The translations under genes were made by a program, and so were the position numbers. A DNA stretch of 64,000 bases from Polaromonas sp. (GTDB lineage: Bacteria; Pseudomonadota; Gammaproteobacteria; Burkholderiales; Burkholderiaceae_C). Below are positions 1,066 to 64,000 of this stretch, piece by piece (positions within the stretch are counted from its first letter, which is position 1; each line of letters opens with the position of its first letter). The DNA is taken from NCBI GenBank assembly GCA_013297865.1, contig JAAFIP010000010.1, positions 99,238 to 163,237 on the forward strand, given 5' to 3'. A model generated the notes under the pieces. It did no database searches and had not been told where the DNA came from. It saw only the letters and a program-made list of their open reading frames with translations.

Positions 1066-1160
1066 TCCCTTTGCGGGACAGCCCAAACGACGCGCAAAGC
1101 GCCCGTTTGCTCTGTCCCCAACTGATTAACTCCCCTTTCAGCATTCAATTCACTATTAAT

Positions 1161-1207
1161 TTAATAGCTGCTCCCGCGATATTCTATTGGGCTGGCAGCC
1201 GATTTAA
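1161..1207 (+). repeat. Dispersed Comamonadaceae repeat, copy 1
   Basis: TTAATAGCTGCTCCCGCGAT followed by ATTCTATTGGGCTGGCAGCC and GATTTAA. It sits in the 162 bp groES-groEL gap and is one of eleven copies in the window. Confidence 0.85.
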
Positions 1208-1218
1208 CCCTTATTTAG

Positions 1219-9780: not shown

Positions 9781-9801
9781 TTTATTTGAAGTTTTAATGC
9801 G

Positions 9802-10003
9802 GACTTCCGGACGCGAAGGGCGCCAAGGTTACGCGAAGGACGCGAAAAAGAGATTCAAAATGAATACCAAGTTTTTTTGTCTCCACACGCACCATTGTTT
9901 GTAAAGTAAATTACAAAAATATCTTTTCTTAATTTTTGTATTTTTTATCTTCTTTCGCGTCCTTCGCGCAACCTTCGCGCCCTTCGCGTCCGGAAGTTCT
10001 GCA
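9802..10003. repeat. Long inverted repeat with GACGCGAAG units
   Basis: Left arm ~9802-9862 (GGACTTCCGGACGCGAAGGG onward) is complementary to right arm ~9941-10003 (ending CCCTTCGCGTCCGGAAGTTC), about 55 bp per arm with few mismatches. The AT-rich loop is about 80 bp. Transcribed, it would form a long hairpin between ugpE and ugpC. A second member of this family lies at 37797-37912. Confidence 0.85.
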
Positions 10004-10041
10004 TTTGGGAAGCTCGATCTTAAAATTCCAGGTTAAAAATC

Positions 10042-20850: not shown

Positions 20851-20996
20851 GAAGCGCTCCTGAAAAAGGGAGTTTCAAGAGCAATTTCCCACCACCGCCT
20901 GCGACCTGGCTGTCACTGGGTTGGTTGAACGCTTCTACTCTTGCCAACTTAAAATTATGCAGCATAAAGCGCGCCAGGTGTGTACTGGGTGCCAGA

Positions 20997-35231: not shown

Positions 35232-35265
35232 GCGGGTATTGACAGGATATTTGCGGAATATTGCT

Positions 35266-35315
35266 ATTTAATTTATAGCTGCTCCCGCGATATTCTATTG
35301 GCCTTAAGGCCTAAA
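35266..35315 (+). repeat. Dispersed repeat, copy 6
   Basis: TTTATAGCTGCTCCCGCGAT ATTCTATTGGCCTTAAGGCC in the gap between convergent genes. Confidence 0.85.
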
Positions 35316-35319
35316 ACAC

Positions 35320-36453
35320 TTATTTTTTGAGCACCAGATTATTCTTGTGCACCATCTCTGGCTCGCCGGTGTAGCCCAGCAGGGCTTCAAACTCGGCGCT
35401 GGCTTTGCGGCAGATCAAGCGGGCTTCGGCGCTGGCATAGTTGGCCAGGCCACGGCCAATCTCCTGGCCCTGCGCATCGATGATGGCGATCACGTCGCCG
35501 CGCGAGAACTCGCCCGTCACCCCCACCATGCCAATCGGCAGCAGGCTGGCCTTGCCCTCACGCAGGCGGGCCGCCGCACCGTTGTCCACCAGCACACCGC
35601 CAGCGAGCTGCAGGTGGTCGGCTATCCACTGCTTGCGGGCCTGGTTTTTGGCGGTTTGGGCGACCAGCAAGGTGCCCAGTGCCTCGCCTTGTGTCAGGCG
35701 CACCAGGGCATTGGGCTCGCGCCCCCAGGCGATGACGGTACTGGCACCCGAGCCTGCTGCGCGCTTGGCGGCCAGGATTTTGGTGATCATGCCGCCTTTG
35801 CCGATGGACGAACCTGCACCACCCGCCATTTTTTCCAGCTCAGAGTCGCCTGCCTTGGCTACGGATACAAACTTCGCATTTGGATCGTTGCGCGGATCGG
35901 CGGTGAACAGGCCTTTTTGGTCGGTGAGGATGATGTAGGCATCGGCCTCCACCAGGTTAGCCACCAGGGCGCCCAGGGTGTCGTTGTCGCCAAACTTGAT
36001 TTCGTCGTTGACCACCGTGTCGTTTTCGTTGATGACCGGCACTACGCCCAGCTGCAGCAGCGTCAGCAGGGTGGAGCGGGCATTGAGGTAGCGTTCGCGG
36101 TCAGCCAGGTCGGCATGGGTCAGCAGCACCTGGGCGCTGCCCAGGCCGTGCTCGCGCAGCTTGGTTTCGTACATCTGGGCCAGGCCCATCTGGCCCACAG
36201 CGGCGGCGGCCTGCAGCTCGTGGATTTCCTTGGGCCGAGTCGTCCAGCCCAGGCGTTTCATGCCTTCGGCAATCGCCCCGCTAGAGACCATGACCACCTC
36301 GCGTTTGTCAGCCGCCAGTGCGGACAGCTGCGCGCACCACAGGCCAATGGCCGCTTCGTCCAGGCCACGGCCTTCGTTGGTCACCAGGCTGGAGCCCACT
36401 TTCACCACGATTCGACGGGCGTTACGCAAGAGGTCGGTGGACTGCTGGTTCAT
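35320..36453 (-). CDS. proB: Glutamate 5-kinase
   Basis: 377 residues from [20 protein letters not shown]; an upstream in-frame ATG at 36468 would add five residues. The amino acid kinase domain has [39 protein letters not shown] and [21 protein letters not shown]-terminal PUA domain ([20 protein letters not shown]) is present. It phosphorylates glutamate at the first step of proline synthesis. It is downstream of obgE, rpmA and rplU on the same strand. Confidence 0.96.
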
Positions 36454-36482
36454 GGAAATGCACGTCATTTATAAGGGTTTTA

Positions 36483-36529
36483 GGGCTCCAAGGCCCTGGA
36501 ATATCGCGGGAGCAGCTATTAATCTTATA
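36483..36529 (-). repeat. Dispersed repeat, copy 7
   Basis: Reverse copy (GGAATATCGCGGGAGCAGCT ATTAA) in the obgE-proB gap. Confidence 0.8.
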
Positions 36530-36637
36530 GCAACTACCTGAGAATGCCTGCACAGATAAGCATCAGGATTTTAGCCTGCTGTGCTGCTGCGACCTGCGTG
36601 TATTGCTTGCTGCAGCCCCGCTGCGGGTACAGCGCGG

Positions 36638-37912
<1,275 letters not shown>

Positions 37913-45586: not shown

Positions 45587-45811
45587 ATGAGCACACCCAC
45601 GCCTGCCTCCAAACCCGCGCCAGTAGTCACCTGCCCCAGCTGCAAGGGTGACAGTATCTTTGCGCCGTCCAACAAATGGCGGCCCTTCTGCAGTGAGCGC
45701 TGCAAGGACCATGACCTGGGTGCCTGGGCCAGCGAGTCCTTCCGCGTACCCAGCGCCGTGCCCGTCCCCGATGAGCTGGCGGGCGATGGGGATACGCAAA
45801 ATATGCATTGA
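45587..45811 (+). CDS. yacG: DNA gyrase inhibitor YacG
   Basis: 74 residues from ATG 45587. A single treble-clef zinc site: CPSCKG ... [17 protein letters not shown]. YacG proteins bind GyrB and block DNA binding. It is the last gene of the pil-coaE-zapD-yacG run. Confidence 0.93.
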
Positions 45812-45812
45812 A

Positions 45813-45863
45813 TTGGGCTGCAGCCCAATAGAATATCGCGGGAGCAGCTATTAAAAATATAGC
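45813..45863 (-). repeat. Dispersed repeat, copy 8
   Basis: Reverse copy immediately after the yacG stop: TTGGGCTGCAGCCCAATAGA then ATATCGCGGGAGCAGCTATT. Confidence 0.85.
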
Positions 45864-45929
45864 TAAAAATGTTCTGCAGCATCCATCAGCATCCCTTGAA
45901 CTGCAGTGACAGTGAGTCCACCAGCCCAT

Positions 45930-50923: not shown

Positions 50924-51562
50924 TTGAAACATTTGATTGCTACGTTTTTAATAGCTGCTCCCGCGACATTTTGTTGGGCTGGGGGCATGGAAAGCCTTGA
51001 AAACTTCCTCAAATCCACCAAGACGGGCCGCGCCGACTTCAGCCAGACCGTTACCTCGCCAGCGCGCGAGGGCCAGGTGCCCAAGCTGAAGAACTCCAGC
51101 GGCACATTTGAGTTTGCGCGCCCCAGCCGCTTCAAGTTTGTCTACAAAAAGCCGTTTGAACAAACCATCGTGGCCGATGGCCAGACCCTGTGGCTGTATG
51201 ACACAGACCTTAACCAGGTCACCGCCAGCAAGCAGGCCGCCATGCTGGCCAGCACGCCAGCGGCCATCATCGCGTCATCGCCTGATCTCAAAAGCCTGGA
51301 GCAGCACTTCAGCCTCAAGTCCGCGCCCGATGCGGATGGCGCGAGCTGGGTGGTGGCCACACCCAAAGCCAAGGAAGGCTCGGTGCAGAGCATCCGCGTG
51401 GGCTTCAAAATGCCTGGCGGCGAGCTGAGCACGCTGGACATCGTGGACAATTTTGGCCAGCGCTCGGTGCTGAAGTTTCAAAAGCTGGACCTCAACCCGG
51501 CGCTACCCGCCGAGACATTCACCTTCAAGCCCCCTGCGGGCGCGGATGTGATCACCCAATAA
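50924..51562 (+). CDS. lolA: Outer-membrane lipoprotein carrier protein with repeat-derived signal peptide
   Basis: 212 residues from a TTG at 50924 with AAGGA upstream. The mature part is LolA: MESLENFLKSTKTGRADFSQ, FEFARPSRFKFVYKKPFEQT, VADGQTLWLYDTDLNQVT, LDIVDNFGQRSVLKFQKLDL. It ferries lipoproteins across the periplasm. The signal peptide h- and c-regions, FLIAAPATFCWA, are exactly the translation of dispersed repeat copy 9, with A-x-A-like cleavage after CWA. Confidence 0.94.
   Translation: MKHLIATFLIAAPATFCWAGGMESLENFLKSTKTGRADFSQTVTSPAREGQVPKLKNSSGTFEFARPSRFKFVYKKPFEQTIVADGQTLWLYDTDLNQVTASKQAAMLASTPAAIIASSPDLKSLEQHFSLKSAPDADGASWVVATPKAKEGSVQSIRVGFKMPGGELSTLDIVDNFGQRSVLKFQKLDLNPALPAETFTFKPPAGADVITQ
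50945..50985 (+). repeat. Dispersed repeat, copy 9 (encodes the LolA signal peptide)
   Basis: TTTTTAATAGCTGCTCCCGC then GACATTTTGTTGGGCTGGGG. In frame with lolA. Confidence 0.9.
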
Positions 51563-57566: not shown

Positions 57567-57934
57567 GTTGACTCCTGGCGCTGCCATGCACCTCTAATCT
57601 TGGAGATTACCAATAGGCAACACTTGACGGCAAACTCCTGTTGCTTGTCAGTACGGCGAGTCTGTTAAGCAGCATTTCTGCCACTTACAACTTTAACCCA
57701 CAACTTATGATACCAGCGTGACCAGGCCACTGTGACATTTGAATCTAGTGTAATACGGTATTCGTATGGCATAGGGCACACGCTATACGAGCATAGCGCA
57801 GGGTATTCAGTAAGAGAACACCGTGCAAGTTACATTTGCCATGTGTTTGCTGAGTTTTTAATAGCTGCTCCTGCAGTAATTTATTGGCCTAAAGGTCGAT
57901 TTTATTGATGACACCGAGCGATATGCTCGTGCCG
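57567..57934. other. Intergenic region at the left edge of the cassette array
   Basis: About 370 bp without a convincing gene. It contains dispersed repeat copy 10. No attC-like palindrome was found here, which fits the distal end of the array. Confidence 0.5.
57855..57904 (+). repeat. Dispersed repeat, copy 10
   Basis: TTTTTAATAGCTGCTCCTGC then AGTAATTTATTGGCCTAAAG GTCGATTTTA, slightly diverged. Confidence 0.8.
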
Positions 57935-58162
57935 CTAATTCTGAAGACTTAGCCAGGCGGCTTCCATTAGCACCAGCGTAGCTTGGTCAACAGTGCAGGA
58001 CTGGCCACAGGCTGCAGACACCCAGACGCGATTGCCATTATTGAGACCGAGCAGTTGTTCGATGTCTTCACCCCACTCGCCCCGCAGAAGAAAGATACTT
58101 ACCTTGCCCGTAACGCGGACGATTGATTTCTGCGCTAGCAAGAGGTTGGCCAATTTCGTCAT
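57935..58162 (-). CDS. Small hypothetical protein (last cassette)
   Basis: 75 residues: MTKLANLLLAQKSIVRVTGK, then VSIFLLRGEWGEDIEQLLGL and VWVSAACGQSCTVDQATLV. No family recognised. It lies ~130 bp beyond the last attC and may be the terminal cassette, though coding evidence is modest. Confidence 0.45.
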   Translation of the reverse strand: MTKLANLLLAQKSIVRVTGKVSIFLLRGEWGEDIEQLLGLNNGNRVWVSAACGQSCTVDQATLVLMEAAWLSLQN

Positions 58163-58292
58163 TTTTTCTATAAAAACGAGCGGACAGAGAAGATCACTTT
58201 CTGAAAGATCGGAAACACTCCATGTGGCGTGCGCTAAGGAAAACCAGCCAGACGCAATGTGCTTTCATTAATTGCCATGGCATCAATTTACA

Positions 58293-58347
58293 TTCTAAGA
58301 GTCCATATAGCAAGGGTTCGTACGCTTGATGGATAAGAGCATGGTTA
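58293..58347 (-). other. attC-like site after the NUDIX gene
   Basis: On the minus strand: TACTAAC (containing the NUDIX stop), then CCAT-CAAG pairing with CTTG-CTAT-ATGG (four unpaired bases in one arm), ending CTTAGAAT. The TCAAGCG box typical of attC is present. Confidence 0.6.
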
Positions 58348-58800
58348 GTAAAACTCCATTGCACGAAGCCCAACGTAACGAGCAAAGGCAAACCCATTTT
58401 CTCGATCTTTCCAGTATTCAGTGTGAAGCATGGGAGGAAAGACGGTTTTCCCTTCGAACTCGCTCCTGCTAAGCCACGCTGCCTCAGTAATATGCTCCCG
58501 TGTCGCTTCGGGGGCCGAGGTGCTAATCGTTCCGCCCAGCAGACGCCCGGTAAACCAAATCTTGCATTCGCGTGTATGAGAGTTTGAGAACTCTTCAATA
58601 TAGGCAAGCTGCAGAGGTTCAACATGAAGGCCACTCTCCTCGAAGACTTCGCGCTTGGCTGCACTGAGCAGATCTTCTGTTCCCTCTGCGCCGCCACCTG
58701 GAGCAACCCAGAAGTCGTACTCGCCCTGCTTCGTATGGCGAACCAGCAAGATTCGGTTGTCGTTCTCAACGATAACGCCGGCAGAAATTCGATGCTTCAT
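58345..58800 (-). CDS. NUDIX hydrolase (cassette gene)
   Basis: 151 residues. The Nudix box is G-x5-E-x7-REVFEESG (PGGGAEGTEDL ... KREVFEESGLHVEP). It starts MKHRISAGVIVENDNRILLV, which is the usual first strand, and ends with WLSRSEFEGKTVFPPML. It hydrolyses a nucleoside-diphosphate-linked compound, unknown which. The ATG lies 8 bp after an attC core and the stop falls in the next attC. Confidence 0.88.
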   Translation of the reverse strand: MKHRISAGVIVENDNRILLVRHTKQGEYDFWVAPGGGAEGTEDLLSAAKREVFEESGLHVEPLQLAYIEEFSNSHTRECKIWFTGRLLGGTISTSAPEATREHITEAAWLSRSEFEGKTVFPPMLHTEYWKDRENGFAFARYVGLRAMEFY

Positions 58801-58807
58801 ATTGAAT

Positions 58808-58897
58808 GTTTTAACAACAAAGATAAGGCACTACCCGCCCGGTAACTAGGCCCAGAGACAATTCTTCCGTGGTGTCGCCTTCATTGCAGAGTTAGAC
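58808..58897 (-). other. attC-like site after the TfoX-like gene
   Basis: On the minus strand: GTCTAAC (perfect RYYYAAC) next to the TfoX stop, AAGGC-G-AC-ACC pairing with GGT-A-GT-GCCTT with single unpaired bases, and a terminal GTTAAAAC. Confidence 0.75.
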
Positions 58898-58898
58898 A

Positions 58899-59249
58899 TT
58901 ATTTAGTGCGCGTTTTCCTGGCAGCGTCTTGCTTCGCTGCCTTGAGCGCAAGTTCTACCCATTTCCTCGTCGCCAAAGGATCGCTAAAAAATTCTGCTGG
59001 CGCTTCATAATATTGCAAGGTTGCGATTTCTCCATCCCTCGGATACGAGAACTGCCGCAGACCGCGTCTGATGAATTCATCGGCCGTACTTGCGTTTGCC
59101 TTGAGATAAAGCAGTCCATCGTGAATGGTGGCAATAAAAAGATCATCACAATAGATATACGTACCGCCAAACATTTTGCGCGTACGCAGCGTCCCAAAGC
59201 CTTTAAGTAGCTTAAGTGTTAAAGCTAATGGATCAGTTTTCATTGGCAT
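58899..59249 (-). CDS. TfoX N-terminal-domain protein (cassette gene)
   Basis: 116 residues. LKLLKGFGTLRTRKMFGGTY and IYCDDLFIATIHDGLLYLKA are the TfoX/Sxy N-terminal pattern. It continues FSYPRDGEIATLQYYEAPAE and ends in a Lys/Arg tail. Full TfoX proteins regulate competence, whereas single-domain cassette forms are of unknown role. Two ATGs 9 bp apart could serve as start. Confidence 0.85.
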   Translation of the reverse strand: MPMKTDPLALTLKLLKGFGTLRTRKMFGGTYIYCDDLFIATIHDGLLYLKANASTADEFIRRGLRQFSYPRDGEIATLQYYEAPAEFFSDPLATRKWVELALKAAKQDAARKTRTK

Positions 59250-59271
59250 GATTTAGGATCTTGATGTTTGA

Positions 59272-59370
59272 CATTCAATACGAGTGATGGCAAAAGGCAC
59301 AGCCTTTCTGCCATCTCCCAACGGAGGAATCAAGTATCGGTGTCGCCCCGCTTTCGAATAACTGGTTGGG
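59272..59370 (-). other. Degenerate attC-like site
   Basis: On the minus strand: CCCCAACCAGTTATTCGAAA (inverse core plus L-box-like), and a hairpin GATGGCA-G-AAAGGC / GCCTTT-TGCCATC with one unpaired G. The terminal core is weak. Confidence 0.45.
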
Positions 59371-59377
59371 GCTACTC

Positions 59378-59896
59378 TTAGTCACAAGCATGGCAAGGCA
59401 ACGAAACTTTTGTTACACGACCACCAGAATGCCAAACGATAATAGGCGCGCACTCTCCCCTAAGCTCTACTGGGGATATGTTTTGCGGTATTTTGACCCC
59501 ATAGTGTTTTTCCAATACTTCAGTTTTCTGACCAACTCTGACTTTACCCAGCAGGTTCCATTTTGCATTGGATATGGTGGCCGCAACTGGTGTTGCCTCA
59601 CTCTCAAAATCTAGTACCGTAAGGTCTAGACCGGAAAAGGTGAGCAAGTGCGCGGTGCAATTTTCAGGGGGTTCACCAGCATAGTCAGCACAGGACTCGA
59701 CTTTTTTACTTTGGAGCTTTGCAATCGCCCGAATTTTATTAATATCGCGAGGAAGGTTTTTCTTCAGCAAGCCACATGAAGAAAAGGGATCGGCCGTTGT
59801 TGTTCTGATTGAGGGAATTTCTTCAGCCGACGCAAAATTCGTCAGCGTGCAAACAGCCAGCACGAAAATCAGAAGTTTTGAAAAACGATGCAGCAT
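59378..59896 (-). CDS. Secreted hypothetical protein (cassette gene)
   Basis: 172 residues from MLHRFSKLLIFVLAVCTLTN, a Sec signal cleaved near ASAEE. Six Cys are spread along the mature protein (SSCGLLKK, ESCADY, ENCTAH, GECAP, PCHAC). The C-terminal part (WNLLGKVRVGQKTEVLEKHY; APIIVWHSGGRVTKVSLPC) has the look of a small SmpA/BLIP-like beta domain. No family recognised. The start lies ~10 bp after an attC core. Confidence 0.75.
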   Translation of the reverse strand: MLHRFSKLLIFVLAVCTLTNFASAEEIPSIRTTTADPFSSCGLLKKNLPRDINKIRAIAKLQSKKVESCADYAGEPPENCTAHLLTFSGLDLTVLDFESEATPVAATISNAKWNLLGKVRVGQKTEVLEKHYGVKIPQNISPVELRGECAPIIVWHSGGRVTKVSLPCHACD

Positions 59897-59905
59897 CTCT
59901 ATAAA

Positions 59906-59974
59906 CCCCAAAGTTTGAGATGAAAGTCTTGATCCAGCTTGCCTGGCCAAGTCCTATCGATGGAAGCGTTAGGC
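59906..59974 (-). other. attC-like site, partly degenerate
   Basis: On the minus strand: GCCTAAC directly after the upstream stop, TCCATCGATAGGAC (compare TCCATCGAGCGGAC in the site at 63377), then CTTTCATCTCAAACTTTGGGG as a decayed right arm and core. Confidence 0.65.
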
Positions 59975-59975
59975 A

Positions 59976-60464
59976 TCAGTGACTGCTCCATGACCATGCT
60001 ACGGAGGCTAGCCTCCCCCTGGTGAACTTGAACACGACAGTCTGCTGGTCAGGGCCTTCGTCGTTTAGCAGGTATTGGAGTGTGTCGGGAGTGCTTTCCA
60101 ATGGATTTCCTGCGAATGCCAGAACCTCGCCGCGTGTGGCCCCGGGAGCAACCTCCTTTGGCAGCTTTGCATGCGGTGCATTCAAGGAGAGAGATTCAAG
60201 AATTTCGTGAGGCGGTATGTGCGACTTCGCCCTGTATTTGACAAGCGCCAAGTTCTTACAGCGAATAGTTACCCGTTCATCCAGGATTTTCTCTTCGAAC
60301 TGATTCTGAACTTGCTTCACCGTCTTGCGTGCTTGAGTGTCGCAAGGATTAGCCGCGATCTCCACACCAAGCCTGTAAAGGGTGTGCTGAATGGTGGGTT
60401 GCGCATTTGCTGATTGCGCAGCGATGCTAAAAAGCAGGATAGATAGACCGAAAAGCGCACGCAT
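59976..60464 (-). CDS. Secreted hypothetical protein with SmpA-like C-terminus (cassette gene)
   Basis: 162 residues. Signal MRALFGLSILLFSIAAQSAN cleaved near ANAQP. The C-terminal ~60 residues (VAPGATRGEVLAFAGNPLES, TVVFKFTRGRLASVAWSW) follow the G-x-TR-x-EV ... G-x-P pattern of the SmpA/OmlA fold. Function unknown. The ATG is ~9 bp after a core-like CCTTAGGC and the stop abuts GCCTAAC. Confidence 0.78.
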   Translation of the reverse strand: MRALFGLSILLFSIAAQSANAQPTIQHTLYRLGVEIAANPCDTQARKTVKQVQNQFEEKILDERVTIRCKNLALVKYRAKSHIPPHEILESLSLNAPHAKLPKEVAPGATRGEVLAFAGNPLESTPDTLQYLLNDEGPDQQTVVFKFTRGRLASVAWSWSSH

Positions 60465-60472
60465 CGCCTGAT

Positions 60473-60508
60473 GCCTAAGGTAGTGTAGACCGCAAAACTT
60501 GCGGTCTA
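60473..60508 (-). other. attC right half or hairpin upstream of the secreted protein gene
   Basis: CTTAGGC core and a perfect 10 bp hairpin TAGACCGCAA / TTGCGGTCTA with a three-base loop. The left half of a full attC is not evident, possibly displaced by the repeat at 60665. It could equally be a terminator-like hairpin. Confidence 0.35.
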
Positions 60509-60664
60509 TAAGTGCGGTAGCAATCTAATCTGAGCATCACATACTCCTAATAATGGCTTGTAGCATCGGTTTTAAATGATTATTGCAGAACGCAGCACAG
60601 CCAGCCTGCTGGATGCAGCGCATGTGCTAACCACTTGTGATCTACATTCCATGAATTCACTACA

Positions 60665-60714
60665 TTTTTTATAGCTGCTCCCGCGATATTCTATTGGCCT
60701 GGAGGCCGATTTAA
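60665..60714 (+). repeat. Dispersed repeat, copy 11 (inside the cassette array)
   Basis: TTTTATAGCTGCTCCCGCGA then TATTCTATTGGCCTGGAGGC CGATTTAA, a near-complete copy abutting the end of the small cassette ORF. Confidence 0.88.
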
Positions 60715-60715
60715 C

Positions 60716-60931
60716 CTACAAAAGCACCCTAAAACCAGCTACAAACGATCTGCAAACCGCCAGCCGCCTAAGACACCTTGCATGACCCAACCCGGCCTTC
60801 CCACACGCCATTGGCTGAGATGAGCTGAGAACCATAAGTGCCGCAACTCCCCAGGCCAGAGCGAAAATGAACTCTGCCAAGCGCCACGGTCGGAACCGAT
60901 AGCGCAGAGGGAGGTTGCGAACTTGTGGCAT
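60716..60931 (-). CDS. Small hypothetical membrane protein (cassette gene)
   Basis: 71 residues. One hydrophobic segment (AEFIFALAWGVAALMVLSSS) after a basic N-terminus (NLPLRYRFRPWR). The ATG lies 14 bp after a GTTAGGC core, as expected for a cassette gene. Its stop lies against repeat copy 11, which may have replaced the native 3' end. No family recognised. Confidence 0.5.
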   Translation of the reverse strand: MPQVRNLPLRYRFRPWRLAEFIFALAWGVAALMVLSSSQPMACGKAGLGHARCLRRLAVCRSFVAGFRVLL

Positions 60932-60944
60932 GTGCGGTGGCTAC

Positions 60945-60964
60945 GCCTAACGTTCGAGTTAGGC
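60945..60964 (-). other. Minimal attC: the two core sites alone
   Basis: GCCTAAC-TCGAAC-GTTAGGC on the minus strand. Both cores are perfect but only six bases separate them, so the usual 50-100 bp central palindrome is missing. The dnaB-like stop codon lies in the first core. Confidence 0.75.
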
Positions 60965-61684
60965 GCCGGCGGAGCTGGTGAGGTGCAGTTGCATCTTCCC
61001 ATCCTGCATGAAGCAAGCCTTATCAAAAAGCGAAAGATCCACTGGATTGGGCAACCGCACGTCCTCCATGGATGGGTATGCCTTAGACGACAGTGTGTAC
61101 TCCCGCCCGATTTGAGACAGGCAAATGATCATAGTTTGACTGGAACTTGCAAACGCCTTCAGTTGCCGCACCTGCGCGTCCAAGTTCGGTTTGTCACGCC
61201 GCTGATCGAGCAACTGAAGGTAGTCGACGACCACCAGCATACCTGGTGGCTCATTCGCCAGACGCTGTGCGATGTATCCAGCGGAAATGTCCTCAGAAGT
61301 GTCCAGCAGCCACTGGCTTCGAAACTCGCTTGCGTCGCGGCCAATCGCCCCCAGTAGCTTGTTTACCTCTACTGGCGTGGCTTCAAGCGTGAAGAAAGCG
61401 GCACGGTTGCCGCGGGTCATCGCTTCGACAGCTAGCGCCAGGCTCAGCAGCGTCTTGCCCTGACCTGGGCGCGAGCCAACAAGAATCAGGTCACCCTTGT
61501 TGAACTGGTCATACGTCGAGCGGCTGGTGTCCTGGCGTTGCCAGGTGGACGCTAGGTGACTCCATGCCTTGAACCCTTCGCGAGCAGCGACTTTGTCGAG
61601 CGCGATATGCAGACGAACCTTGTCTCTGTCAGACAAGGCCTTCGCTTGTTGCTTGAGTATGTAGATTGGCGCAGAAAGCTTCAT
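60959..61684 (-). CDS. Stand-alone DnaB-like (RecA-fold) ATPase (cassette gene)
   Basis: 241 residues. A ~50-residue N-terminal helical part (YILKQQAKALSDRDKVRLHI, then DKVAAREGFKAWSHLA) precedes the RecA-like core: Walker A GSRPGQGKT, FFTLE, Walker B MLVVVDYLQLL, and IICLSQIGRE. This is the DnaB C-terminal ATPase domain without the DnaB N-terminal or linker domains, half the size of replicative helicase. A GGAGG site precedes the ATG. It is unlikely to be the replicative helicase; a mobile-element or defence role is possible but unproven. Confidence 0.82.
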   Translation of the reverse strand: MKLSAPIYILKQQAKALSDRDKVRLHIALDKVAAREGFKAWSHLASTWQRQDTSRSTYDQFNKGDLILVGSRPGQGKTLLSLALAVEAMTRGNRAAFFTLEATPVEVNKLLGAIGRDASEFRSQWLLDTSEDISAGYIAQRLANEPPGMLVVVDYLQLLDQRRDKPNLDAQVRQLKAFASSSQTMIICLSQIGREYTLSSKAYPSMEDVRLPNPVDLSLFDKACFMQDGKMQLHLTSSAGA

Positions 61685-61877
61685 AAATCCTCCGATGTGC
61701 GACCGTGTTCGCGCGCTCTCCTTACGCGATAGGTCGAATCAAAGGTTGAAGTTGCAGGCAGCCTACCCAGTACGAAAAATACTTCCCCAGCGGAGAGAGG
61801 GAGGCATGGGACCGATGCCTGCAGAAAGTTTAGCACAGCCGAGGTTCCGGAGGAAGGGGCTGGTCGGGGCTTGCGAC
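61685..61877 (-). promoter_or_regulatory. Leader of the DnaB-like cassette, possible promoter
   Basis: An unusually long 193 bp cassette leader. On the minus strand, TTCCTC-N17-TAAACT with a TG before the -10 (TGCTAAACT) could be a promoter serving this cassette internally. Weak motif evidence. Confidence 0.3.
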
Positions 61878-61979
61878 GCCTAAGGACTAGCTTGAGCAGC
61901 CGCCGGAGCGGGCAGCGCGAAGGGGGCCTTGGGCCAGCGAAGCGAGCTTAAGGCCGACGGCTCGATCCGCTTGTTAGGC
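61878..61979 (-). other. attC-like site after grpB
   Basis: On the minus strand: GCCTAAC with the grpB stop inside, then AAGCGGATCGAGCCGTCGGC, and after ~60 bases GGCGGCTGCTCAAGC with a final CTTAGGC core. About 100 bp; the arms are imperfect. Confidence 0.7.
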
Positions 61980-62510
61980 ATCACCTTTGGCCAGTAAAAG
62001 CACTTGTTGGACAAATGGAAGCTTGGCAGCGGTGTAGGCTCGCCGATCTTCAGAAAAGCGCGCCGCAAGTTGCCGTTTGAGATTGCAGTACTCCAGGGCT
62101 ACTGCCGGATTTGCACGTAGGTAATCTCGAAAGAGCATTTTCTCGACCCAGAACGGTGAATTTTCTGTGGTGAGTGACAGGTGATGAGTTCGACAAGCTC
62201 GAGGTCCGCATGCAAGAAAGATTCGCTCGGAAGATGAATCTTCTGGTCTGTGCTCGTAGCCGAGTAACACTAGTTCAGGCACCAGTGCAGCGCCTGCTTC
62301 GATATCACTTACAGCGACCACCAAGTCAATAATCGGCTTGGCATCAACACCAGGAATTGCTGTGCTCCCAACATGCTCCGCACGACCGATTCTCTCCCCG
62401 AGGGTTTCGCGAAGGCGATTGACTTCCGCTGAATAGAGTATTGGCCATCGTAGATCATATGGCACCACTTGGACTGTGCCTCTCTTTAAACCCAGCATCT
62501 TGCTGACCAT
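61974..62510 (-). CDS. GrpB/UPF0157 family protein (cassette gene)
   Basis: 178 residues from MVSKMLGLKRGTVQVVPYDL. The family signature is clear: RAEHVGSTAIPGVDAKPIID, LVVAVSDIEAGAALVPELVL, GYEHRPEDSSSERIFLACGP. GrpB proteins belong to the nucleotidyltransferase superfamily and are frequent in cassettes; their activity is poorly known. The ATG is 6 bp after a GTTAGGC core. Confidence 0.9.
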   Translation of the reverse strand: MVSKMLGLKRGTVQVVPYDLRWPILYSAEVNRLRETLGERIGRAEHVGSTAIPGVDAKPIIDLVVAVSDIEAGAALVPELVLLGYEHRPEDSSSERIFLACGPRACRTHHLSLTTENSPFWVEKMLFRDYLRANPAVALEYCNLKRQLAARFSEDRRAYTAAKLPFVQQVLLLAKGDA

Positions 62511-62515
62511 GTGAT

Positions 62516-62574
62516 GCCTAACGCCGCCGCTCAGCCGACGCTGCAAGCGGGCGGATGTGGCTGCTTGTTATCCC
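62516..62574 (-). other. attC-like site after the acetyltransferase gene
   Basis: On the minus strand: GGGATAAC, CCGCC-C-GCT pairing with AGCGGCGG with one unpaired C, and a perfect GTTAGGC core. About 59 bp. Confidence 0.7.
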
Positions 62575-62580
62575 TAACAT

Positions 62581-63006
62581 TCACAGCACCTTTCTCATGA
62601 ATGCTGAATCGCGATCGTCGAAATAGTTTTCCAGGCGCGCCGCCTCCACGTAGCCCTGTTTACGGTAGAAATCCGGCGCCTGCCATTCGAAGGTTTCAAG
62701 ACCTACATTCTTGGCACCAAGCTCGCGTCCACGAGCCTCTGCCTCTGCCAAAAGCCTGCTACCCACTCCGGCTCCCCGAAATGCATCGTCAACCCAGAGG
62801 AATTCAAGTCGCAACCAGTACATGAGAACAGTGCCTCGGATTCCACCAATTGCGACTCCGTTGGAGTCCTTCGCATTTAGCCAGACAACCTGCGACTCCG
62901 GATACTCGCCAATATGCTTGTAGTTGAATTCGCGCAGCCGACGGCCTAGCGGCAGGCCATACCGGACTTCTTCATCGCTGGGCGTGTAGATCGTAACTGA
63001 GGTCAT
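62581..63006 (-). CDS. GNAT-family N-acetyltransferase (cassette gene)
   Basis: 141 residues. MYWLRLEFLWVDDAFRGAGV and GSRLLAEAEARGRELGAKNV form the acetyl-CoA motif A (R/Q-x-x-G-x-G/A = RGAGVG). FEWQAPDFYRKQGYVEAARL is motif B. Acetylates an unknown small molecule or protein. The ATG lies 4 bp after an attC core-like GGATAAC. Confidence 0.88.
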   Translation of the reverse strand: MTSVTIYTPSDEEVRYGLPLGRRLREFNYKHIGEYPESQVVWLNAKDSNGVAIGGIRGTVLMYWLRLEFLWVDDAFRGAGVGSRLLAEAEARGRELGAKNVGLETFEWQAPDFYRKQGYVEAARLENYFDDRDSAFMRKVL

Positions 63007-63009
63007 GAA

Positions 63010-63068
63010 GGATAACGTTAGAGGCCAGGCGCGGCTGCGGGCTGTCGCCTGTAGGCCGACGTTTTAAA
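63010..63068 (-). other. attC-like site
   Basis: On the minus strand: TTTAAAAC (with the stop of the upstream gene), GGCC-TAC-AGGCG pairing with CGCCTGGCC with three unpaired bases, and a final GTTATCC core. About 59 bp. Confidence 0.7.
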
Positions 63069-63369
63069 GATCATGGCGAACGTCTCCGCGCGTGAGGTGC
63101 CACGCTTGTAAGCGCGCCGTGAACGCAGCAGGATTTGCATGCTTGACCCCCTCTTCGCCCATGCCCATGTGTTCCCCAACCACGTACTCAAGATAGTGTG
63201 AGATTTCGTCGGCTGTTGCATTTCTTTGGAGCAACTGGAATGTTGGTTCGATGTAGCCGTTGTATTCATCATCCACAGTGCTTGAAACAACGCCTATTGG
63301 ATCCCATTCATTCCAAAGACGGCGAAGGGCAGCAATCGTGTTGTTGTCGGTGCGAGCAGCGTCGGTCAT
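63064..63369 (-). CDS. DUF1871-like hypothetical protein (cassette gene)
   Basis: 101 residues from MTDAARTDNNTIAALRRLWN. The stretch LWNEWDPIGVVSSTVDDEYN and GYIEPTFQLLQRNATADEIS resembles DUF1871/YugE-like small helical proteins, some of which accompany toxin-immunity loci. Function unknown. The ATG is 7 bp after an attC core; a longer frame upstream runs into the attC and is not used. Confidence 0.75.
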   Translation of the reverse strand: MTDAARTDNNTIAALRRLWNEWDPIGVVSSTVDDEYNGYIEPTFQLLQRNATADEISHYLEYVVGEHMGMGEEGVKHANPAAFTARLQAWHLTRGDVRHDL

Positions 63370-63376
63370 ACGATAA

Positions 63377-63479
63377 GCTTTAACGTTCGATATGAGCGGC
63401 AAACAACGGCGTATACAGGCTTCGGCAAACAGCACAAGGCCGCCCGCCGTTGTTTGTCCGCTCGATGGAGGGGTTAGCC
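63377..63479 (-). other. attC site (best preserved)
   Basis: On the minus strand: GGCTAAC containing the TAA stop of the immunity gene, TCCATCGAGCGGAC, and a long stem GAGCGG-A-CAAACAACGGCG / CGCCGTTGTTTG-CCGCTC with one unpaired A, ending GAACGTTAAAGC. Unpaired bases in one arm are characteristic of attC recombination hairpins. Confidence 0.85.
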
Positions 63480-63874
63480 CTCATGCGCGTCATCGTAGGG
63501 ACTCTTTGTAAGGATTGCATCAATCTCCTCCTGCTTGCGCTTTCCCCACATGAGGTTGACCTGCGACATGAGTTCGACCTCTTTAGCGAATAACAGCCGA
63601 CGAAAGCTGCGCCCTCTGACTCTGTTCTTCACTTCAAAGTCACACGCTAGACCGAACACGACGTCCGACATGAGCCAGTACACAACTTCCTCTGCGTCTT
63701 CCATGTAGCGGGTTTCAAGAGTGCTTCCGCGCTCGGTAACGATGTATCTGTACCCAGAGCCATACCTCTCAACGTGTGCGGACCCATCATGCCCTGGCCC
63801 CCAGGGGAAAGAGATCTGTACTCCTAACGCGGCGCAGCAGACTCTGTGTTGCGCCGCGACCTCTGCTAGCGATG
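63474..63874 (-). pseudogene. Imm63-like immunity protein, 5' end cut by an IS
   Basis: About 133 codons remain. The Imm63 pattern is visible: GHDGSAHVERYGSGYRYIVT, DAEEVVYWLMSDVVFGLACD, NRVRGRSFRRLLFAKEVELM and the terminal KSPYDDA. Such proteins neutralise polymorphic toxins, but no toxin gene is in the window. The frame runs on into IS sequence, so the native start codon and perhaps ten residues have been replaced. It may be unexpressed, or expressed from an IS-borne start. Confidence 0.75.
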
Positions 63875-64000
63875 TGACCTGCCCCCAATAAACAGCAACG
63901 CCGCGATTCGGAGTCCAATTAGCCTTGAAAGGAAATTGGACGATGAAGAAGAGATTCACAGAAGAGCAGATCATTGGGTTTCTGCGTGAAGCTGATGCTG
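63875..64000 (+). mobile_element. IS3-family insertion sequence, left end (continues beyond window)
   Basis: Starts with the terminal-repeat-like TGACCTGCCCCCAATAAACA and carries the first codons of an orfA transposase 68 bp in. It is inserted in the 5' part of the Imm63-like gene. The right end and any target duplication are outside the window. Confidence 0.8.
63943..64000 (+). CDS. IS3-family transposase OrfA (N-terminal fragment at window edge)
   Basis: The 19 visible codons read MKKRFTEEQIIGFLREADA, the typical start of the helix-turn-helix OrfA of the IS407-like group of IS3. GGAAA precedes the ATG. OrfB would follow outside the window. Confidence 0.85.
   Translation, partial: MKKRFTEEQIIGFLREADA

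What the first reader, a model, noticed from the sequence alone, without database searches (positions are those of the whole stretch)
57935..63874. Previously unannotated integron-type cassette array of at least nine cassettes
Seen: unrelated small genes all on one strand, with attC-like imperfect palindromes between most of them, and stop and start codons placed against the core sites. The best sites (63377-63479, 63010-63068, 62516-62574, 58808-58897) have stems with unpaired bases in one arm. Known: this is the structure of integron cassettes, recombined as folded single strands by IntI. Inferred: a chromosomal integron in a Comamonadaceae host, seen from its distal end, with intI to the right.
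Basis: partly seen in the sequence, partly recalled or inferred. Interest (0 to 1): 0.85.

Follow-up and report, generated by a model that had tools for sequence, protein, structure and literature searches.

The report
Integrase-less, decaying integron cassette array
A row of about nine small unrelated genes in this bacterial genome is the likely remnant of an integron, a natural gene-collecting system: several of the recombination sites between the genes look worn out, no integrase gene is found in the assembled genome, and a transposon sits where that gene would be expected; this is an ordinary kind of find.

Summary
A covariance model built only from attC sites of relatives' integrons finds two clear attC sites in the window, 63378-63479 (40.2 bits, E 8e-8) and 58809-58897 (25.2 bits, E 5e-4); a genome-wide search returned only these two. 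Half-site profiles add eroded sites at 63010, 62516, 61878, 60945 and 59906, so 7 of 9 internal boundaries carry attC signal; none was found after the last gene. Two eroded sites have lost the conserved GTT of R' (CTT, TTT), one its hairpin, one most of a spacer. No integron integrase is in the held assembly, whereas 136 of 299 family genomes have one. The contig ends 126 bp into an IS3-type element starting at 63875, on the integrase-proximal side. Four of six IS copies have perfect 4-bp target duplications; the flank beside the array matches none of the six right ends. So this is a CALIN (attC cluster lacking an integrase), likely beheaded by an IS-linked rearrangement and now decaying. attC hits without a detected integrase are common in the family. 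New member of a known kind.

The parts
63875..64000 (+). Left 126 bp of an IS3-type insertion sequence (inverted repeat TGACCTGCCCCCAA); assembly break; interrupts the first retained cassette gene within a few codons of its start
   Evidence: same 69-126 bp at five other contig ends; plasmid relatives annotated IS1389, IS1403, IS1404
63474..63874 (-). Cassette gene: Imm63-domain protein, 5' end cut off by the IS (start codon and up to about 4 residues missing)
   Evidence: PF15599 E 3e-18; 29 homologues at E<=0.001, 8 of them aligned
63378..63479 (-). attC site, best preserved (R'' GGCTAAC, R' GTTAAAG, one extrahelical A)
   Evidence: 40.2 bits, E 8e-8; both half profiles above all background
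63064..63369 (-). Cassette gene, 101 aa from the ATG at 63369, no family match
63010..63066 (-). Eroded attC: geometry kept, R''/R' pairing poor
   Evidence: geometry; right half 9.8 bits, 1 of about 514,000 background positions as high; CM only 6.3 bits
62581..63006 (-). Cassette gene: GNAT acetyltransferase
   Evidence: PF00583; 84% and 74% identical proteins in two Polaromonas records, one of which has attC hits about 2-3 kb away
62516..62574 (-). Eroded attC: intact right half with GTTAGGC, left spacer shortened
   Evidence: right half 17.7 bits, background maximum 10.3; no CM hit
61974..62510 (-). Cassette gene: GrpB-family protein, 178 aa from the ATG at 62510
   Evidence: PF04229 E 1.2e-45
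61878..61979 (-). Eroded attC: R'' GCCTAAC kept, R' reads CTTAGGC
   Evidence: left half 13.0, right half 9.0 bits; 1 and 2 of about 514,000 background positions as high
60959..61684 (-). Cassette gene: DnaB-like helicase (NF004629), 241 aa
   Evidence: 307 bits, cut-off 156; no homologue at E<=1e-40 in 298 other family genomes, one in 368 other genomes of a class sample
60945..60964 (-). Hairpin-less attC remnant GCCTAACTCGAACGTTAGGC
   Evidence: 16.4 bits, E 0.081; right half 21.5 bits, background maximum 10.3
60465..60944 (-). ORF-poor segment (likely decayed cassette) holding a dispersed repeat at about 60654-60716 and an R'-like CTTAGGC at about 60473-60490
   Evidence: 4.9 bits, not significant
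59976..60464 (-). Cassette gene, 162 aa, no family match
59906..59974 (-). Eroded attC: 55 of 69 bases identical, without gaps, to attC sites of an IntI-bearing relative; R' reads TTTGGGG
   Evidence: 13.8 bits, E 0.36; left half 17.9
59378..59896 (-). Cassette gene, 172 aa from the ATG at 59896, no family match
59316..59371 (-). Weak attC candidate
   Evidence: 7.4 bits, E 1.6: not significant alone
58899..59249 (-). Cassette gene: TfoX N-terminal domain protein
   Evidence: PF04993 E 1.4e-24
58809..58897 (-). attC site
   Evidence: 25.2 bits, E 5e-4; left half 23.8 bits
58345..58800 (-). Last recognisable cassette gene: Nudix hydrolase; no attC found after it
   Evidence: PF00293 E 1.1e-16

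Best explanation
The stretch 58345-63874 carries attC recombination sites between one-directional small genes and is the likely remnant of an integron cassette array (a CALIN) whose integrase gene is absent from the assembled genome. Inferred history: an IntI integrase once inserted circular cassettes one by one at an attI site to the right of the window, by acting on the attC strand folded into a hairpin. An IS3-type element then inserted at the start of the first retained cassette, and a later IS-linked deletion or rearrangement likely removed attI and intI, because the IS flank beside the array has no target-site duplicate among the right ends. Without an integrase the array would be static; its attC sites appear to be eroding (R' GTT changed to CTT or TTT, hairpin lost, spacer shortened) while the genes, apart from the cut first one, keep open reading frames. 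Cassettes would move only if an IntI acted in trans, and probably only at the two best sites.
For: A covariance model without window sites hits 63378-63479 and 58809-58897; their nearest training sites share 42 and 35 of 52 bases. The genome-wide search at E<=1 returned only these two. Half-site profiles: at 7 of 9 internal boundaries the better half is equalled by at most 1 of about 514,000 background positions. 59906-59974 is 55/69 identical to attC sites of an IntI-bearing relative and differs at the R' G. No IntI over cut-off; 26 IntI proteins of relatives find by tblastn nothing but the XerD-like gene in 516 kb of window and contig ends. IS: 6 left and 6 right ends; 4 pairs share 4-bp duplicates, the array-side flank GATG matches none. 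The helicase is almost absent from relatives and the GNAT protein has a relative near attC sites.
Against: Only 2 of 9 boundaries pass the full model; they are about 4.5 kb apart. With filters off the two best hits were not returned at full length (the first only as a 7.4-bit short version, the second not at all); I attribute this to their long hairpin inserts, without proof. The genome-wide search scored 150 of 1236 first-look candidates. Contigs under about 4 kb are not in the held assembly (smallest seen 4011 bp; the IS interior itself is missing), so a short piece with intI between two IS copies could be missing. Missing target duplicates also arise in other ways, and one other IS pairing (C22/C2 start) shares only 3 bp. 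No attC after the Nudix gene, so the distal end is undefined. One of two Polaromonas GNAT loci shows no attC (L104).
Confidence: 0.85

Rival explanations
1. A complete chromosomal integron split by the assembly: intI and attI lie beyond the IS on sequence that is missing from the assembly.
For: The contig ends inside a multi-copy IS; draft genomes are known to inflate CALIN counts (passages of PMC9024848); contigs under about 4 kb are not held.
Against: Both ends of all 27 contigs were read; apart from the array itself none shows attC and none shows intI; genome searches find only XerC-like, XerD-like and a P4-type integrase; attC erosion suggests a long time without integrase.
Confidence: 0.12
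2. Not an integron: an ordinary genomic island of small laterally acquired genes with chance palindromes.
For: Most boundaries fail the full model; no integrase.
Against: E 8e-8 with a model built from other genomes; 63378-63479 resembles a specific attC type of relative L066; no hits at E<=2 in 272 kb of other sequence of the same genome.
Confidence: 0.03
3. The cassettes were inserted at this place by an integrase acting in trans (attC x attG), and no integron platform ever stood here.
For: CALINs away from the platform are reported in Xanthomonas (passages of PMC12444791); no attI or intI relic found.
Against: About nine cassettes in one orientation next to an IS with unmatched flanks fits a beheaded array better. 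The empty site could not be tested: the genus holds one genome and the flanking gene is rare in the family.
Confidence: 0.12

Closest known systems
[quoted passage not shown]
   Same: two or more attC sites by covariance model, one gene orientation, no intI nearby; proposed to be degraded integrons (PMC9024848, passages)
   Different: here attC erosion is visible site by site, and the integrase-side end is an IS without a matching target duplicate
CALIN of Halorhodospira halochloris with an IS at its end (PMC7923331, passages)
   Same: a single CALIN of ten cassettes, no intI in the whole genome, an IS next to the array
   Different: there the IS (IS200/605) lies after the last attC; here an IS3-type element cuts the first retained cassette gene
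Small CALINs in Delftia tsuruhatensis 161/1 and D. lacustris LZ-C (PMC10794605, passages)
   Same: integrase-less attC clusters in a genus that I recall as Comamonadaceae
   Different: only two attC sites each, no IS breakpoint described in the passages seen
Fused cassettes with truncated attC in class 1 integrons (PMC4670013, passages)
   Same: partial loss of attC joins neighbouring genes into a fixed unit
   Different: there one site in a mobile integron with integrase; here several sites and no integrase
Integrons of IntI-bearing relatives in the same family (e.g. L052, L066)
   Same: same attC sequence types (55/69 identity with L052 sites; L066 sites share GGACAAACAACGGCGG with 63378-63479)
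   Different: those have intI and well-conserved attC sites

Membership tests
CALIN / integron cassette array | at least two attC sites found by a covariance model | tested here: met
   two at E 8e-8 and 5e-4 in the window, with a model of mine (R1), not IntegronFinder's
CALIN / integron cassette array | attC anatomy: R''/R' with AAC and GTT, spacers, L stem, extrahelical base | tested here: met
   63378-63479 complete; others partial
CALIN / integron cassette array | attC sites close enough to be clustered as one array (about 4 kb, recalled) | tested here: inconclusive
   the two clear model hits are about 4.5 kb apart; eroded sites lie between them
CALIN / integron cassette array | no integron integrase nearby | tested here: met
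   within a draft assembly
Complete chromosomal integron | IntI integrase with its specific domain | tested here: not met
   TIGR02249 in the own genome: 0 over cut-off; 136 of 299 family genomes match at E<=1e-60, 128 over cut-off
Complete chromosomal integron | attI site and Pc promoter next to the first cassette | not testable with these tools
   the contig ends in the IS
Functional cassettes | excision or integration by IntI | not testable with these tools
   needs a bench assay
IS3-family element (IS1389/IS1403/IS1404-like) | inverted repeats, short target duplication, IS3-type transposase | tested here: inconclusive
   repeats and 4-bp duplicates at four of six copies; DNA relatives so annotated; the interior is not assembled

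The most novel reading that the evidence does not exclude
The array is a beheaded integron caught in the act of becoming an ordinary gene block: one IS-linked rearrangement removed the integrase, after which attC sites were lost one by one by changes of the R' cleavage base and by loss of the hairpin, while the cassette genes, including a DnaB-like helicase hardly seen in relatives, were kept. It would be a readable time series of integron fossilisation.
Probability: 0.35. Interest if true: 0.45.

Novelty: new member of a known kind. Interest (0 to 1): 0.3.

Why it matters
CALINs are common, but how integrons lose their integrase and what happens to orphan attC sites is mostly inferred from counts. 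This case offers a concrete breakpoint (an IS without a matching target duplicate) and graded attC damage that can be tested. Otherwise it is one more integrase-less array in a family where that is frequent: 37 of 150 sampled genomes had two or more attC hits and no IntI at E<=1e-60 (whether the hits lie in one cluster was not tested, and both searches scored only part of their candidates).

Tried and rejected
A simple box-complementarity scan found no attC at the right places because it demanded near-perfect R''/R' pairing; it was replaced by folding on relatives and then a covariance model. My folding detector found only 58809 in the array and two places elsewhere in the window (27232, 46217), so it is not sensitive. 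Rfam at gathering scores gave only a tRNA and a xanthine riboswitch. Plasmid records hold nothing similar to the array beyond one 102-bp match. A search for the helicase in named genomes gave nothing. The idea that the window contig C2 is a circle closed by one IS copy (C2 end to C2 start) was considered: the flanks share no duplicate (GATG / TAGG), so it is not favoured, not excluded. The idea that hairpin-less attC sites are a recurrent, specific event was toned down: similar short R''-R' pairs occur near IntI genes (13 in 366 kb) but also elsewhere in the own genome (7 in 432 kb), and intact right halves look like them. Synteny: the flanking glyoxalase-like gene occurs in only 3 of 298 other family genomes, and their loci showed no significant attC. 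PADLOC gave only two weak hits, PDC-S07 for the Nudix protein and mad8 for the helicase. Literature: six searches. They listed one paper with CALINs in Delftia (passages seen); I found no paper on this genome's array, and most subscription papers are not held.

Rows dropped: of 55 candidate attC sites from 11 relatives' loci 43 went into the model; 12 were left out by eye (coding-region or merged matches, opposite orientation, off-register or near-duplicates). In one search, 26 of 30 relatives' IntI loci gave a protein; one of the 26 is partial (193 aa) and several probably run past the true start. In some searches one contig end (C5 end, L007) had been left out; searches mended this: no attC, no IS end, only the XerD-like gene.
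Full report
What is there. From 58345 to 63874 there are nine open genes on the minus strand: an Imm63-domain protein cut at its 5' end, an unknown 101-aa protein, a GNAT acetyltransferase, a GrpB-family protein, a DnaB-like helicase (NF004629, 307 bits), two unknown proteins, a TfoX N-terminal protein and a Nudix hydrolase, plus an ORF-poor segment at 60465-60944. This makes nine internal boundaries and one end after the Nudix gene.

Test for attC. To avoid circularity I made a model without the window. IntI (TIGR02249) regions of 20 relatives were fetched; a folding search listed attC sites around them; 55 candidates from 11 loci met a stem criterion and 43 were aligned without gaps. The structure R'' 7 bp - 9 nt - L 6 bp - one extrahelical base - stem is supported by covariation (90.7% of cells paired; covariation score 0.388 against 0.123 in shuffles and at most 0.119 in slid versions). 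On 14 sources (257 kb) the model R1 gave 42 matches at E<=0.1, in eight of the nine relatives' loci not used for training (none in L057) and none in the five own-genome sources; of the 20 best, 4 lie within four bases of a training site, so the test is not fully independent. In the window it found 63378-63479 (40.2 bits, E 8e-8), 58809-58897 (25.2, 5e-4), 60945-60964 (16.4, 0.081) and 59906-59974 (13.8, 0.36), all in the array and on the gene strand. The first two share at most 42 and 35 of 52 bases with any training site. The genome-wide search at E<=1 returned only these two, at 32.6 and 25.2 bits, E 4e-4 and 0.03; it scored 150 of 1236 first-look candidates. In 252 kb and a further 20 kb of other own-genome sequence there was no hit at E<=2, and in another 90 kb none at E<=1. 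One discordant result: with filters off the two best sites were not reported at full length; I think their long hairpin inserts exceed the allowed hit length in that mode, but did not show it.

Erosion. Half-site profiles scored over about 514,000 background positions of the same genome gave maxima of 14.6 (left) and 10.3 (right). On the gene strand of the array: left halves 27.0 (63456), 23.8 (58874), 17.9 (59951), 13.0 (61956); right halves 21.5 (60945), 19.4 (63378), 17.7 (62516), 9.8 (63010), 9.0 (61878), 7.0 (58809). On the other strand the highest were 11.2 (62516) and 8.7 (58521, inside the Nudix gene) for left and 8.4 and 6.1 for right halves. So seven of nine internal boundaries carry attC signal, mostly as damaged sites: 61878-61979 has CTT and 59906-59974 TTT in place of the R' GTT, and the latter is 55/69 identical without gaps to attC sites of relative L052; 60945-60964 has no hairpin; 62516-62574 has a short left spacer; 63010-63066 keeps the geometry but has poorly paired R boxes. 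AAC and GTT are described as the conserved bases of attC sites (PMC2727003, passages), so the CTT and TTT sites are predicted to be inactive. The boundaries at about 60480 and 59316-59371 are not significant alone, and none was found after the Nudix gene. In relatives not used for training 31 of 42 hits score 30 bits or more; in the window one of four does.

Integrase. PF00589 finds three tyrosine recombinases: XerD-like on C5, XerC-like on C12, a P4-type integrase on C22 (the names are my reading of the sequences). TIGR02249 has no match over its cut-off, while 136 of 299 family genomes match at E<=1e-60. Twenty-six IntI proteins of relatives found nothing by tblastn (E<=0.01) in 496 kb comprising the window, 20 kb before it and the ends of the other contigs; in the remaining end, that of C5, they found only the XerD-like gene.

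The insertion sequence. The window's last 126 bp are shared with five other contig ends. Reading both ends of all 27 contigs gives six left and six right ends of this element; plasmid relatives of the DNA are annotated as IS3-like IS1389, IS1403 and IS1404. Flanks of four pairs share a perfect 4-bp duplicate (GCAC, TACC, CCCC, CCAG), a fifth pairing shares 3 bp, and the array's flank GATG matches none of the six right ends. Joining the four matched pairs gives frames of 299 to 585 aa through the junction; unmatched pairings gave 135 to 266 aa, largely one-sided. The element entered the Imm63 gene within about four codons of its start (alignment with eight homologues), so the lost side is the integrase-proximal side. 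That an IS-linked deletion took intI is an inference; a missing short contig is the main alternative.

Origin of the cassettes. The GNAT protein is 84% and 74% identical to proteins of two Polaromonas records; in one of them attC hits lie about 2-3 kb away on the same strand (L105; 24.7, 18.0 and 14.5 bits), in the other none. The helicase has no homologue at E<=1e-40 in 298 other family genomes and one in 368 other genomes of a class sample, but relatives of up to 80% identity among predicted proteins of public genomes and metagenomes: likely a foreign passenger.

How ordinary. R1 hits occur in 110 of 150 sampled family genomes, the window's own included; 52 of these 110 have no IntI at E<=1e-60, and 37 of the 52 have two or more attC hits (not tested for clustering). 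[quoted passage not shown] A CALIN with no intI in the genome and an IS beside it is known in Halorhodospira (PMC7923331, passages), small CALINs in Delftia (PMC10794605, passages), and loss of attC that fuses cassettes in class 1 integrons (PMC4670013, passages). I therefore file it as a new member of a known kind, with modest interest from the breakpoint and the graded attC damage.

Noticed in passing
window 1147-1209, 35261-35323, 36471-36536, 45808-45881, 50928-50995, 60654-60716 and about 57860-57905 (by eye), and many other contigs: A dispersed 40-70 bp repeat (TAGCTGCTCCCGC...TATTGGCCTGGAGGCCGATTT) occurs many times across the genome, in both orientations; one copy sits inside the array's ORF-poor segment. 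From memory such repeats are widespread in Comamonadaceae; no call tested that.
   Followed up: no
window 63474-63974: The truncated Imm63 frame stays open through about 33 codons of the IS end up to an ATG inside the IS, so a fusion protein could be made.
   Followed up: no
window 9796-10005 and 37798-37905: Long imperfect palindromes: each stretch matches its own reverse complement (72% over 222 and 76% over 108 aligned bases).
   Followed up: no
window 20874-20945 (-): Xanthine riboswitch aptamer (NMT1) above gathering score.
   Followed up: no
L058:6280-6298 and L060:4933-4963: Near IntI genes of two relatives, attC remnants keep R'' and R' but lack the hairpin, at places that by eye have short direct repeats; possible slippage across the hairpin.
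   Followed up: partly
L072 start (own contig C14) and L101 end (C11): An IS copy interrupts a gene that looks like an RHS-repeat protein; next to it a 165-bp stretch is 90% identical to a second copy about 1.5 kb away.
   Followed up: no
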